Shown: piece by piece, positions 8,183 to 11,360 of the stretch
Layout of the letters: every line of letters begins with the position of its first letter
How positions within the stretch are numbered: the first letter of the stretch is position 1
From: Jiangella anatolica
GTDB taxonomy: Bacteria; Actinomycetota; Actinomycetes; Jiangellales; Jiangellaceae
Reading direction: 5' to 3'
Length of the DNA: 37,841 nucleotides
NCBI RefSeq assembly: GCF_003236295.1
Contig: NZ_POTW01000066.1
Coordinates: forward strand, 1 to 37,841
The notes under the pieces: generated by a model
Seen by the model: only the letters and a program-made list of their open reading frames with translations
What the model was told of the DNA's origin: nothing
Databases searched by the model: none
Program-made: the position numbers and the translations under genes

Positions 8183-8251
8183 GCGGCCGGTCGACGACTC
8201 GTCCCGAGCGGTTACCGAGAGCTCCACGCGTGCAGATCCCTTCCGGGATCG

Positions 8252-8287
8252 TTGCCACGCCGGCAGCAGTGTGCGATATTCGCACTA
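8252..8287 (+). promoter_or_regulatory. Predicted leaderless promoter with perfect palindromic operator
   Basis: TTGCCA (8252-8257) and GATATT (8275-8280) are separated by exactly 17 bases, and the A of the ATG at 8287 falls where transcription should start. There is no Shine-Dalgarno sequence. The -10 sits inside GTGCGATATTCGCAC (8271-8285), a perfect 6+3+6 inverted repeat ending 1 base before the start codon. This suggests leaderless mRNA repressed by a dimeric HTH protein, most simply the XRE protein encoded directly downstream. Confidence 0.7.
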
Positions 8288-9384
8288 TGGCGGGCAGTGT
8301 GGAGAGGTGGGACCAGGTGGGCCGTCGCGTGCGCGAGGCTCGGATCGCGGCTGGACTCAGTCAGAGCCAACTTGCGAGTCTGTTGCGTATCGACCGTTCC
8401 GCGCTCGTGCGGGTGGAGAGCGGACAGCGCCAGGTATCGGCGCTGGAACTCTTTCGGTTGTCGGACCACCTCGGAGTACCGGCAGGTCATTTCGTCTCCG
8501 CACCGATTCCAGCGATCGTGTCCCAGCGCATGGACCTCGACGAAGCCGCTCAGCCGGCGGCACGCGACCGGTTTCGGCTGGACGCGGCGCTCGAGGCCCA
8601 CGCACGCGACGCGGAGTTCCTCCGAACCGGCGGATTCCTCCCGGACGGTCTCGCGCTCCCTTCCGGACCGGTGGCGAGCGTTGCCGATGCACGAGCTCTG
8701 GCTTTGTCGGCGCGAGCCGCCATCGCCCTCGACGACAAGCCCGTGCAAGGCATGGCATCGACGGCCGAATACTTCGGTCTCTACCTTCTGGTCGCGGCCC
8801 TGCCAGGTGAAGGGGCGTCCCTGCGCCTGGACGACCAGTTCGGTGTCGCGATCGTCGGCGGTACCGCGCCAGCGGGCCGGCGCCGCTTCACCGCCGCACA
8901 TGAGCTTGGCCATCACCTGCTGGGGGATGAGTACCAGTCGGACATCGGGGTGGCGGCCAGTCGCGACGAGCGCGAATGCTTGATCGACGCGTTCGCCGCG
9001 GCCTTCCTTCTACCGGAGACCGCCGTCACCGCTCGGTGGCCCCTGCTCCAGGGTTCCGAGCGCGAGAAGCTGGTTCAGCTCGCCGCCGAGTTCCGAGTCT
9101 CATGGGGCGCCGCGGTAAAGGCGGTCAAGCGGGCGGGGCTGGTCGACGCCCAACGCGCGGGCACCTTGAACGCCCAGACTCCGCAGCGAGGCGATTTCCT
9201 GGCGATCTTCGGAACGGAGCCGGTGGAAGACCTGCGCACGGGCGAGACCGGCGCGGCCTGGCGGCGAGCAGTGCTGGCCGCCTATCAGGACGGGACGGTA
9301 ACCCCAGCGCGGGCCATCGAACTGCTGCACGGCGCGCTCGAGGAGACAGATCTGCCCGACCGCGAGGACGATGCCGCACCATGA
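8287..9384 (+). CDS. XRE-HTH / ImmA-IrrE metallopeptidase fusion protein
   Basis: 365 residues. Residues 10-65 are an XRE helix-turn-helix (VREARIAAGLSQSQLASLLRIDRSALVRVESGQ). The ImmA/IrrE (M78) peptidase domain follows, with the zinc site AAHELGHH (H205, E206, H209) and the probable third ligand in RECLIDAFAAAFLLP. ImmA-type proteases cleave or inactivate partner repressors on a stress signal; XRE-ImmA fusions act as antitoxin-like or switch regulators. Codon use (more TTG, CTT, CGA) is less GC-biased than the flanks, suggesting transfer. The gene overlaps the PIN gene by 4 bases (ATGA). Domain calls are firm; the toxin-antitoxin role is inferred. Confidence 0.88.
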   Translation: MAGSVERWDQVGRRVREARIAAGLSQSQLASLLRIDRSALVRVESGQRQVSALELFRLSDHLGVPAGHFVSAPIPAIVSQRMDLDEAAQPAARDRFRLDAALEAHARDAEFLRTGGFLPDGLALPSGPVASVADARALALSARAAIALDDKPVQGMASTAEYFGLYLLVAALPGEGASLRLDDQFGVAIVGGTAPAGRRRFTAAHELGHHLLGDEYQSDIGVAASRDERECLIDAFAAAFLLPETAVTARWPLLQGSEREKLVQLAAEFRVSWGAAVKAVKRAGLVDAQRAGTLNAQTPQRGDFLAIFGTEPVEDLRTGETGAAWRRAVLAAYQDGTVTPARAIELLHGALEETDLPDREDDAAP

Positions 9385-9884
9385 CGATCCTGATCTGGGA
9401 CACGTCGCCCGTCCTGCACGCCGGCCGCATTGATCGCCTGGACGTCCTCGGCGACATCGCATCCGGCTGGCAGAACCTGACGACCGCCGCGGTCGTGGAA
9501 GAGCTCGAGGCTGCGGGCGTCGCGTTGCCCAGCTGGCTGGAGGTCGTCCATGTCGACGGACTGGCAGAGCTCGTGGCGCTGGGCGAGTGGCTCCAACGGG
9601 TCGCTGCCGGCGACCGGAACCGCGGCGAGGCCACCGTCCTGGCATGGGCGCAGGTCCACGGCGCCCTCCCGATCATCGACGACAAGGACGCCCGTGCCGC
9701 CGCCCAGCGCGGCGGCCTCGACGCGCATGGCCTGCTCTGGGTCGTCGCCGAAGCCGTCCGGAGCGGCAGGATCACCAGCGTCGCCTCAAGCGGGTTCGTC
9801 GATGCGATGCTGGCTTCGGGCGCCAGATACCCACTCGAGCCCGGCGGCTTCGTCGATTGGGCCAAGGCGAACTCGCTGCTCTGA
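9381..9884 (+). CDS. PIN-like domain protein, partner of XRE-ImmA
   Basis: 167 residues with a PIN-nuclease pattern: IWDTSP (D7), VVEELE (E40/E41), GEATVLAWA (E83) and IIDDKDARAAA (D100/D101, D103), the usual four acidic positions for Mg binding and RNA cleavage. It is translationally coupled to the XRE-ImmA gene. Resemblance is to the DUF3368/DUF4411-type PIN proteins that accompany XRE-COG2856 proteins rather than to classical VapC, which pairs with a small antitoxin. It is probably an RNase held in check by the upstream protein. C-terminal residues 120-167 (helical, GGFVDWAKANS) are less conserved. Confidence 0.75.
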   Translation: MTILIWDTSPVLHAGRIDRLDVLGDIASGWQNLTTAAVVEELEAAGVALPSWLEVVHVDGLAELVALGEWLQRVAAGDRNRGEATVLAWAQVHGALPIIDDKDARAAAQRGGLDAHGLLWVVAEAVRSGRITSVASSGFVDAMLASGARYPLEPGGFVDWAKANSLL

Positions 9885-10046: not shown

Positions 10047-11360
10047 GTGACCACCACCATCCAGACCCGTCCGCCGCTTCCGGCGCCGCCGTCGGCGCCG
10101 GCCACCTCGCCGGTCCGGGTGACCGGGCCGGCCGTTCCCGGCGCCGACGAGATCCTGACGCCGGCCGCGCTGCGCTTCCTCGCCGACCTGCACCGCCGGT
10201 TCGCCGGACGGCGAGCCGAGCTGCTCGCGGCCCGGCAGGAGCGCCGGCAGCGGATCGCCGACGGCGAGAACCCGGACTTCCTGCCGGAGACGAAGGCCAT
10301 CCGCGACGACCCGGAGTGGCGTGTGCCGCCGCTGCCGGCCGGGCTGCTGGACCCCGGCGCCGACGTCGGGCGGGCCGACTTCGAGGACACGGCCACACCG
10401 CACCTCGTGAACGTCGTCACCGGGCAGCTGGACCTGCGCGCGACACACCGGCCCGCGATCGTCCGGCCGCGCGGCTGGCACCTCACCGAGAAGCACCTGC
10501 GCGTCGACGACCAGCCGATGGCCGCGGCGCTGGTCGACGCCGGCCTGTACGTGTTCCACCACGCAGGCGCCGGGCCGTGGTTCCGGCTGCCGAAGCTGGA
10601 GAGCCACCAGGAGGCGCGCCTCTGGCACGACGTCTTCGCCCACGCCGAGGACGTGCTGGGGCTGGAGCGCGGCACGATCCGCGCCACCGTCATCGTCGAG
10701 ACGATCACCGCCGCGTTCGAGGCGGAGGAGATCCTCTACGAGCTGGGCGAGCACGCCGCGGGGCTGGAAGCGGACGAGTCGGACTACCTGTTCAGCATCG
10801 TCAAGACGTTCCGCAGCCGCGGCCGGCGCTTCGTCCTGCCGGACCGGTCGGCCGTCACGGCGGACGTCCCGTTCCTGCGCGCCTACACCGAGCTACTCGC
10901 CTACACCGAACGCAGGCGCGTCGACGGCGACGGCGCCGGCCGGCGCCCCGTCACGGCCGCCGACCTGCTCGACGTCGCGGCCACTCCCGGCATGGTCACC
11001 GAGGACGGGCTGCGCGGCAGCGTCGCGGTCGCCATCGGCTACCTCGAGGCGTGGCTCGGCGGACGGGGCACGGTCACGGCCGGCGGTCTCGTCGCGGACA
11101 CGGCTGCCGCGGAGCTCGCCCGATCGCAGATCTGGCAGTGGATCGAGACCGAGACGCCCCTGGACGACGGCCGCCTCATCACGCCGCGGCTGGTCCGCTA
11201 CCTCGTCGAGGAGGAGGTGGAGCGGCTCCTCGCCGAGGCCGGCGAGGATGCCGAGCGAGGCGGCCGGGTCGAGACCGCGCGGCGGCTGTTCGAGGAGGCC
11301 GCCCTGGAGCCGGCCTACCCGACGTTCCTCACCATCGCCGCCTACGCCCGCCACGTCTGA
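10047..11360 (+). CDS. aceB: Malate synthase A homologue with internal deletion
   Basis: 437 residues, against ~530-540 for malate synthase A, which condenses glyoxylate and acetyl-CoA to malate. Clear landmarks: RADFEDTATP, RPRGWHLTEKH (R142), GPWFRLPKLESHQEARLW, IRATVIVETI (E218), ESDYLFSIVKTFR (D246), and TAAAELARSQIWQW following D351, the position of the catalytic Asp in family LMEDAATAE. After LLAYTERRR the chain jumps to VTAADLL, so about 75-80 residues are absent, including the conserved RRGxHAMGGMAAxIP segment and DGTWVAHP. The frame is open and the GTG start has GGAGGAG 6 bases upstream, so it is likely expressed; activity is doubtful. Its place beside a urate-degradation operon fits glyoxylate disposal. 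Confidence 0.8.
   Translation: MTTTIQTRPPLPAPPSAPATSPVRVTGPAVPGADEILTPAALRFLADLHRRFAGRRAELLAARQERRQRIADGENPDFLPETKAIRDDPEWRVPPLPAGLLDPGADVGRADFEDTATPHLVNVVTGQLDLRATHRPAIVRPRGWHLTEKHLRVDDQPMAAALVDAGLYVFHHAGAGPWFRLPKLESHQEARLWHDVFAHAEDVLGLERGTIRATVIVETITAAFEAEEILYELGEHAAGLEADESDYLFSIVKTFRSRGRRFVLPDRSAVTADVPFLRAYTELLAYTERRRVDGDGAGRRPVTAADLLDVAATPGMVTEDGLRGSVAVAIGYLEAWLGGRGTVTAGGLVADTAAAELARSQIWQWIETETPLDDGRLITPRLVRYLVEEEVERLLAEAGEDAERGGRVETARRLFEEAALEPAYPTFLTIAAYARHV

What the first reader, a model, noticed from the sequence alone, without database searches (positions are those of the whole stretch)
8287..9884. XRE-ImmA fusion coupled to a PIN-domain protein: possible protease-controlled RNase module
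A repressor-protease and a PIN protein are translationally coupled (ATGA), have lower-GC codon use than the flanks, and have their own operator. ImmA proteases respond to stress by cleaving partners, so PIN activity may be released or restrained by proteolysis, unlike classical VapBC. Pairings of XRE-COG2856 proteins with PIN-like proteins have been proposed as toxin-antitoxin systems, but the mechanism is not settled to my knowledge.
Basis: partly seen in the sequence, partly recalled or inferred. Interest (0 to 1): 0.62.

Follow-up and report, generated by a model that had tools for sequence, protein, structure and literature searches.

The report
Protease-controlled bacterial toxin–antitoxin gene pair
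This is a bacterial toxin-antitoxin gene pair in which the antidote protein is also a DNA-binding repressor and a zinc protease, so stress can probably make the antidote cut itself and free an RNA-cutting toxin; a counterpart has just been worked out in another bacterium, so it is a well-supported new member of a known kind.

Summary
In detail: in a Jiangella genome, an XRE-HTH/IrrE-type zinc-peptidase fusion (8287-9384) overlaps a PIN gene (9381-9884) by ATGA, with a perfect GTGCGA-N3-TCGCAC palindrome abutting the start codon. Comparative data make it a toxin-antitoxin pair. Among 99 classified family loci, both genes are intact in 72, the fusion is intact but PIN broken or absent in 21, both are broken in 6, and PIN is never intact with the fusion broken. 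The two proteins co-diverge (Mantel r 0.90). HExxH...E is kept in 91 of 91 fusions, the four PIN acidic residues in 67-70 of 70. The operator is conserved in 84 of 91 loci (controls 0 of 89). The mechanism is already in print for an architecturally matching pair, VapBC52: single-stranded DNA triggers antitoxin autocleavage (PMC13273310). So this is a new member of a known kind. Not met in the passages I read: an invariant arginine (R342) in the fusion's tail, a remote link of that tail to UPF0175 antitoxins, absence of the cysteine switch, and an operator sitting on an apparently leaderless promoter.

The parts
8271..8285 (+). operator-like palindrome GTGCGA-TAT-TCGCAC; its centre (8275-8280, GATATT) sits where some relatives have a -10-like hexamer (TATAAT/TAGAAT), and the start codon follows one base after the palindrome
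   Evidence: sequence; only exact match in the window; conserved in 84 of 91 family loci at >=10 of 12 positions, 0 of 89 control windows; upstream sequences
8287..9384 (+). XRE-HTH / IrrE-ImmA-type (M78) zinc-peptidase fusion, 365 aa, predicted antitoxin, repressor and sensor
   Evidence: H205, E206, H209, E230 in 91 of 91 intact fusions, window included
8329..8484 (+). HTH_3 (XRE) DNA-binding domain, residues 15-66
   Evidence: Pfam PF01381 7.4e-12; SinR/C.AhdI/ImmR/CapH-like fold, Z 12-13.6, in the joined model of a relative
8764..9123 (+). Peptidase_M78 domain, residues 160-279; HExxH at 205-209 (codons 8899-8913), third ligand E230
   Evidence: Pfam PF06114 6.1e-17; CapP-like fold Z 11.6 over 156 residues in the relative's model
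9238..9372 (+). C-terminal helical tail (residues about 318-362) with the family-invariant R342 (codon 9310-9312); inferred PIN-neutralising domain, remotely similar to UPF0175
   Evidence: R342 in 91 of 91 and the only residue at 100% in 318-362; tail-to-tail profile match to distant PIN-paired tails, of which 7 of 18 match UPF0175 at E <= 1
9381..9384 (+). ATGA overlap of stop and start (translational coupling)
   Evidence: -4 overlap in 38 of 69 intact pairs, -1 overlap in 5, other overlap in 2, gaps of 0-60 nt in 23, no start codon found in 1
9381..9884 (+). PIN-domain protein, 167 aa, predicted RNase toxin; acidic site D7, E41, E83, D100, D101

Best explanation
A self-contained toxin-antitoxin operon of the XRE-COG2856/PIN kind, the kind to which VapBC52 belongs. 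The first protein is antitoxin, repressor and sensor in one chain. Its HTH binds the palindrome that overlaps the -10 region and start of an apparently leaderless promoter, and it holds the co-translated PIN RNase inactive by direct contact; the tail with R342 is the likely active-site plug. On stress (single-stranded DNA in the published counterpart; zinc or redox in IrrE) the peptidase cuts off its own HTH domain. That both derepresses the operon and frees PIN, which cleaves RNA and arrests growth, probably as defence against phage or DNA damage. Shown here: gene architecture, conserved catalytic residues in both proteins, co-divergence, one-way decay, conserved operator. Inferred: DNA binding, binding interface, self-cleavage, trigger, RNA target, phage defence.
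For: One-way decay: 21 loci with the fusion intact and PIN broken or absent, 0 the reverse, of 99, although the fusion is 2.2 times longer. PIN-seeded searches agree: fetched intact close PINs are next to a fusion (one search compared). Co-divergence Mantel r 0.90 over 69 pairs, 0 of 2000 permutations. Antitoxin-first order with overlap or a gap of at most 60 nt in 68 of 69 intact pairs. In the flanks held (about 1-1.5 kb a side) no third gene recurs in more than 6 other loci of 92. Operator conserved 84 of 91. HExxH + E230 91 of 91; PIN D7 67, E41 70, E83 69, D100 69 of 70. A read-through chain of a relative's two proteins models as one confident unit, pLDDT 90.1 and pTM 0.87. The 1.62-kb block of operator plus both genes is shared with two other Jiangella genomes at a different site, the flanks not being shared. 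Published counterpart: Rv2514c toxic and rescued by Rv2515c in M. smegmatis (PMC6504116 passages); VapBC52 crystal structures, ssDNA-triggered autocleavage, tRNA cleavage, phage resistance (PMC13273310). XRE-COG2856 next to PIN was listed by Makarova 2009.
Against: No experiment on this pair. One-way decay is also expected if PIN merely depends on the fusion without being toxic. In VapBC52 pull-downs the N-terminal domain, not the C-terminal one, was critical for binding, so the tail may not be the main grip. The cysteine-switch ligand described for VapB52 is not conserved: Cys lies within 16 residues after HExxH in 5 of 92 rows (the window counted twice), and the window has Ser at the equivalent spacing. 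The 'FR' cleavage motif is present in the window (F56-R57 by position) but not conserved (F in 14, R in 57 of 91). Direct sequence homology to VapBC52 was not tested. No copy was found in the plasmid or phage collections.
Confidence: 0.72

Rival explanations
1. Toxin-antitoxin pair in which the peptidase is only a zinc-stabilised scaffold: neutralisation and repression occur, but release comes from general proteases (Clp, Lon) as in classical type II systems.
For: The VapB52 HEXXH mutant still binds VapC52 (PMC13273310 section 27). The cysteine switch is not conserved here.
Against: H205, E206, H209 and E230 are kept in 91 of 91 fusions at a mean identity of 38%, which is hard to explain without catalysis; the catalytic E206 is not itself a zinc ligand in HExxH peptidases (recalled).
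Confidence: 0.15
2. The fusion is a trans-acting protease and anti-repressor (ImmA-like) that cuts another repressor; PIN is a regulated effector of that pathway rather than an addiction toxin.
For: ImmA cleaves ImmR and IrrE cleaves DdrO in trans (Makarova 2009 passages; PMC7907104 abstract). XRE-M78 proteins without a PIN neighbour are common in related genomes.
Against: No third gene recurs beside the pair in the flanks held; the operator lies on the fusion's own promoter; PIN is never intact without an intact fusion in the 99 loci.
Confidence: 0.1
3. A RosmerTA-type phage-defence system in the narrow sense, with PIN as one more RmrT toxin.
For: PADLOC RmrA models are the best hits of the fusion (2.7e-20, aligned over residues 13-297). 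Ernits 2023 reports the ImmA antitoxin node D25 paired with PIN-like domains (PMC10440598 passages).
Against: The PIN protein's PADLOC hits were PDC-S70 only; whether that library holds RmrT models I did not check. RmrA models also match distant XRE-M78 proteins. This overlaps with the best explanation and differs mainly in label and in the claim of phage defence.
Confidence: 0.2

Closest known systems
VapBC52 of Mycobacterium tuberculosis (Rv2515c antitoxin / Rv2514c toxin; PMC13273310)
   Same: Large antitoxin with an N-terminal domain like XRE-type DNA-binding proteins, an IrrE-type HEXXH peptidase and a C-terminal helical domain; PIN toxin; antitoxin gene first. There, ssDNA triggers HEXXH-dependent autocleavage of the N-terminal domain and the C-terminal domain occludes the PIN active site.
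   Different: No cysteine-switch ligand here (Ser218 at the matching spacing; Cys in 5 of 92 rows); FR motif present in the window but not conserved in the family; direct sequence comparison not made.
XRE-COG2856 with PIN, predicted by Makarova et al. 2009 (PMC2701414)
   Same: Zn-peptidase fused to Xre HTH in an operon with PIN; 42 PIN-COG2856 associations listed.
   Different: They proposed the protease cuts an Xre repressor in a three-component system; here the HTH, peptidase and inferred neutralising tail are one chain.
RosmerTA (RmrA/RmrT) and the D25 node of NetFlax (PMC10440598)
   Same: RmrA-like XRE-M78 antitoxin; D25 reported with PIN-like partners.
   Different: The RmrT characterised there depolarises membranes; here the partner is PIN.
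UPF0175/DUF3368 pairs (COG2886-COG2405, VapBC-like)
   Same: The PIN is remotely of the DUF3368 group (7 of 19 family members match at E <= 1); the six distant PIN relatives without a fusion have a UPF0175-like gene just upstream (3 above Pfam's cut-off, 3 weaker).
   Different: Antitoxin here is 365 aa with HTH and peptidase; its tail is only remotely UPF0175-like.
CapP/CapH of CBASS
   Same: IrrE-type sensor peptidase and XRE substrate domain (capP 2.8e-15, capH 1.1e-5 in one chain; CapP fold Z 11.6 in a relative's model).
   Different: One chain here, beside PIN instead of CBASS.

Membership tests
XRE-COG2856/PIN toxin-antitoxin (VapBC52-like) | XRE HTH and M78/IrrE peptidase in one chain with HExxH...E | tested here: met
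XRE-COG2856/PIN toxin-antitoxin (VapBC52-like) | PIN gene directly downstream, antitoxin first, coupled | tested here: met
XRE-COG2856/PIN toxin-antitoxin (VapBC52-like) | PIN fold with acidic metal site | tested here: met
XRE-COG2856/PIN toxin-antitoxin (VapBC52-like) | separate C-terminal helical domain that occludes the PIN site | tested here: inconclusive
   tail present with invariant R342; joined model of a relative pTM 0.87, but coordinates could not be inspected
VapBC52 itself, as described in print | cysteine-switch ligand 9 residues after the second His of HEXXH (described for VapB52 and CapP; not a feature of the wider XRE-COG2856/PIN kind) | tested here: not met
   Ser218 in the window; Cys within 16 residues in 5 of 92 rows
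XRE-COG2856/PIN toxin-antitoxin (VapBC52-like) | toxicity, neutralisation, ssDNA-triggered autocleavage, RNA cleavage | not testable with these tools
   published for VapBC52 only
RosmerTA | RmrA-type antitoxin | tested here: met
   PADLOC RmrA 2.7e-20; models broad
RosmerTA | RmrT-type toxin | tested here: inconclusive
   no hit named RmrT for the PIN protein, but RmrTs are described as diverse and the library's RmrT coverage was not checked
classical VapBC | PIN-fold toxin | tested here: met
classical VapBC | small RHH/AbrB/Phd/UPF0175 antitoxin gene | tested here: not met
   365-aa XRE-M78 fusion instead
UPF0175/DUF3368 pair | UPF0175 antitoxin | tested here: inconclusive
   window-family tails 0 of 18 Pfam hits; distant paired tails 7 of 18; unpaired tails 0 of 20; hhalign 38% window family, 22% unpaired, 6.5% and 2.6% on longer stretches

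The most novel reading that the evidence does not exclude
The fusion's tail is an old UPF0175-type antitoxin domain: a plain UPF0175-PIN pair was rewired by joining its neutralising domain to an XRE-IrrE sensor protease, turning a degradation-controlled pair into a self-cleaving alarm, with R342 plugging the PIN metal site and a non-cysteine switch (D214/D219 region) gating the peptidase. The HTH that is cut off also sits on the -10 of a leaderless promoter, so one cleavage would free the toxin and derepress the operon at once.
Probability: 0.3. Interest if true: 0.6.

Novelty: new member of a known kind. Interest (0 to 1): 0.42.

Why it matters
It moves a protease-controlled PIN toxin-antitoxin kind, now explained in one pathogen, into a broad actinobacterial family (fusion hits at E <= 1e-40 in 67 of 200 genomes of one family and 19 of 200 of another; a few of these are the distant branch), including Jiangella. 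It names testable residues (R342, D214, D219, E206) and an operator, and suggests how a classical PIN antitoxin domain may have been coupled to a DNA-damage or phage sensor. The 21-to-0 decay asymmetry is an independent, experiment-free argument for which gene is the toxin.

Tried and rejected
Weak PDB sequence hits for PIN led nowhere; the fold search settled it. The idea that the UPF0175-like tail is specific to PIN-paired fusions was weakened by my own control: tails of unpaired XRE-M78 proteins also match the distant paired tails (hhalign 89.9%) and weakly UPF0175 (22%), all above 100 column-shuffled decoys, so it may be a general helix-turn-helix tail; on longer stretches window-family tails matched UPF0175 at only 6.5% and also matched the unpaired set at 96.6%. 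For these tests I used 18 of 27 distant paired tails and 20 of 28 fusions without a PIN neighbour; left out were L045, L077, L093, L104, L106, L126, L132, L133, L139 and L107, L110, L120, L122, L123, L134, L135, L137. L110 has a paired-like tail but no PIN hit. Frameshifts in PIN near residues 22-45 in several unrelated loci were read for a shared slippery site or programmed frameshift; positions and sequences differ, so they are taken as decay. An empty-site test with the downstream malate-synthase-like gene failed because the other Jiangella genomes hold only a more distant copy. A first synteny check was too small and its tblastx E-values were inflated by summed scores; it was redone with 18-19 kb of two relatives. 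The window itself holds fewer near-matches (up to 2 mismatches) to the operator motif than shuffles, 3 against a mean of 6.4, so the support comes from conservation and position, not from rarity of the near-motif. Plasmid and phage collections gave no match. PMC3968373 states COG2856-Xre is absent from M. tuberculosis (passages), whereas PMC2701414 and PMC13273310 describe Rv2515c as this architecture; I follow the latter.

Rows left out of the 99-locus table: L157 (PIN cut by a contig end); distant matches L177, L178, L180 and the seven f17 matches of 142-152 bits other than G180 that were not fetched; G019 (both broken), G021 (PIN remnant alone), G698 (PIN fragment 60-171, no fusion listed) and the G111 N-terminal fusion fragment (L123), none of which is an intact PIN without a fusion. 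L076 was scored 'PIN intact' by the script and reclassified by hand as broken because the middle of PIN lies in another frame; it also counts among the 70 PIN rows. The table is mostly fusion-seeded; searches are the PIN-seeded checks, and their locus lists are capped, so some weak hits (for example G090, G130, G323) were not fetched there. In one search six distant PINs (E 1e-10 to 7e-21) have UPF0175 instead of a fusion; L100 is a fragment and was not classed. Of the 84 operator matches, L204 scores at an unusual distance and may be chance.

Full report
What is there. At 8287-9384 a 365-residue protein joins an XRE helix-turn-helix (HTH_3, 7e-12) to a Peptidase_M78/IrrE domain (6e-17) with HELGH at 205-209. 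Its stop overlaps the start of a 167-residue protein at 9381-9884 by ATGA. The second protein is a PIN domain: Pfam gives only DUF3368 at 0.0019, PADLOC's candidate PDC-S70 matches at 2.8e-15, the AlphaFold model has pLDDT 95, and its best structural neighbours are PIN and VapC chains (Foldseek 1y82 1e-4; SSO1118 Z 12.6 and VapC Z about 12). D7, E41, E83, D100 and D101 are invariant in 19 of 19 aligned sequences, window included.

Linkage. A PIN-seeded search found hits in 34 of 345 genomes of the class at E <= 1e-3. Every fetched intact PIN there lies directly downstream of an XRE-M78 fusion; the exception is the remnant in G021. In 200 genomes of one family (f17), the PIN-seeded list (60 of 200 genomes), compared by eye with the fusion-seeded list (67 of 200), shows no intact close PIN (above 100 bits) away from a fusion; one fragment (G698, residues 60-171) has none listed. 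In 296 genomes of the phylum, six distant PINs have no fusion; all six have a UPF0175-like gene immediately upstream instead, three of them above Pfam's cut-off. In the Jiangella genus 3 of 12 genomes carry the close pair. Against 18-19 kb of the two others, blastn aligns the window only over 8243-9862 (76% identity), while those two share flanks with each other: operator and genes form one block that sits at a different site here. No plasmid or phage record matched. In the short flanks held for 92 loci, no other gene recurs in more than 6 further loci.

One-way decay. Classifying 99 family loci by reading-frame coverage gave 72 with both genes intact, 21 with the fusion intact and PIN frameshifted, truncated or gone, 6 with both broken, and none with PIN intact and the fusion broken (L076 judged by hand; exclusions listed under Tried and rejected). 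The fusion is 2.2 times longer, so neutral decay would favour the opposite. If the 21 asymmetric losses were independent and proportional to length, the chance would be about 3e-11; that is my arithmetic, and independence is assumed because the lesions I read differ between loci. This is what a toxin needing its antitoxin predicts. It would also follow if PIN were merely useless without the fusion.

Constraint. In intact fusions H205, E206, H209 and E230 are kept in 91 of 91 and D214 in 91 of 91, D219 in 87 of 91; PIN D7 in 67, E41 in 70, E83 in 69 and D100 in 69 of 70. Mean identity is only 38% and 37%, and pairwise distances of the two proteins correlate at r 0.90 over 69 pairs, 0 of 2000 permutations reaching it. 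In the tail of the fusion (318-362), R342 is the single residue at 100%. An arginine from the antitoxin reaching into the PIN acidic site is known from FitAB and other VapBC complexes (recalled, not from a call), so R342 is my candidate plug.

Operator. GTGCGATATTCGCAC occupies 8271-8285, one base before the ATG. Of 91 loci, 84 score at least 10 of 12 fixed positions within about 75 nt upstream; 0 of 89 windows 300 nt further up do, and 0.3% of shuffles. In some branches the arms change together to GTTCTA...TCGAAC, and the centre reads TATAAT or TAGAAT, with the start codon a few bases on: an operator lying on the -10 of what looks like a leaderless promoter. Leaderless transcription is inferred from spacing only.

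The tail. PIN-paired fusions from distant branches match UPF0175 in their C-terminal part: 7 of 18 tails at E <= 1 (best 1.3e-7; the 18 were taken from 27), against 0 of 20 unpaired XRE-M78 tails (taken from 28) and 0 of 18 window-family tails. Profile comparison restricted to the last 75 residues links window-family tails to the distant paired tails (92.9%) and weakly to UPF0175 (38%), with no column-shuffled decoy of 100 as good; but unpaired tails also match the paired tails (89.9%) and UPF0175 weakly (22%). So the UPF0175 link is a reasonable hypothesis, not a result. It gains weight because UPF0175 is the neighbour of sister PINs and because the published VapB52 C-terminal domain occludes the PIN active site; against it, pull-downs there put the critical grip in the N-terminal domain. 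UPF0175 does not occur in the main text of that paper, and a full-text search for UPF0175 with toxin-antitoxin and PIN gave two papers only, neither of which links it to COG2856 in the passages I saw.

Complex. In one relative (L024) the two genes are in the same frame separated by a single stop. The chain read through that stop, aligned with 34 further rows (3 joined, 15 fusion-only, 16 PIN-only), gave pLDDT 90.1 and pTM 0.87 for 564 residues.

What is known. Makarova 2009 listed COG2856-Xre fusions beside PIN and RelE toxins and proposed a protease-controlled three-part system (passages). Ernits 2023 found the ImmA antitoxin node of RosmerTA paired with PIN-like domains (passages). TASmania reported that Rv2514c is toxic and rescued by Rv2515c (passages). 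In June 2026 VapBC52, the same pair, was solved: N-terminal and C-terminal domains both contact the toxin, the peptidase is proposed to be gated by a cysteine switch, ssDNA triggers HEXXH-dependent loss of the N-terminal domain, the toxin cleaves tRNAs and its overexpression gives phage resistance (PMC13273310: abstract, sections 26-28 and 39 and passages read). IrrE of Deinococcus is triggered by free zinc under oxidative stress (PMC7907104 abstract). PDC-S70 is an unvalidated defence candidate encoding a PIN domain (PMC12988326 passages).

Same and different. By architecture the window's pair works like VapBC52 and I file it with the XRE-COG2856/PIN kind. It departs in one tested feature of VapB52: the cysteine at the switch position is absent (Ser218; Cys within 16 residues after HExxH in 5 of 92 rows). 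The FR motif occurs in the window (F56-R57) but not across the family. Three loci of one family (L085, L086, L088) carry HTH and peptidase as two ORFs in one frame split by a single stop, with PIN third, a three-gene form close to Makarova's idea.

Verdict. Interest 0.42.

Noticed in passing
window 10047-11360: A malate-synthase-A-like paralogue of 437 aa that matches the family model in three stretches but below its cut-off (400 of 594 bits); the genome's other copy lies at G000:C66 (open frame 542 aa). It may lack an internal segment.
   Followed up: partly
L085, L086, L088: HTH and M78 parts of the fusion lie in two ORFs in one frame, split by a single stop, with PIN as third gene: a three-gene form of the module.
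   Followed up: partly
L103, L105: XRE-M78 followed by another protein that looks PIN-like by eye but that the PIN profile does not recognise: possibly another PIN branch with the same kind of antitoxin.
   Followed up: no
L127, L136: Unpaired XRE-M78 proteins directly followed by similar-looking proteins of about 390 aa: candidate partners of another XRE-M78 system.
   Followed up: no
L190, L191, L196, L202, L203 (upstream of the fusion): Operator arms switched from GTGCGA/TCGCAC to GTTCTA/TCGAAC, with mixed forms elsewhere: a natural series for HTH specificity change.
   Followed up: no
L053, L163, L170, L191, L203: PIN genes broken by frameshifts at differing places beside intact fusions in unrelated genomes; no shared slippery sequence was seen.
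   Followed up: partly
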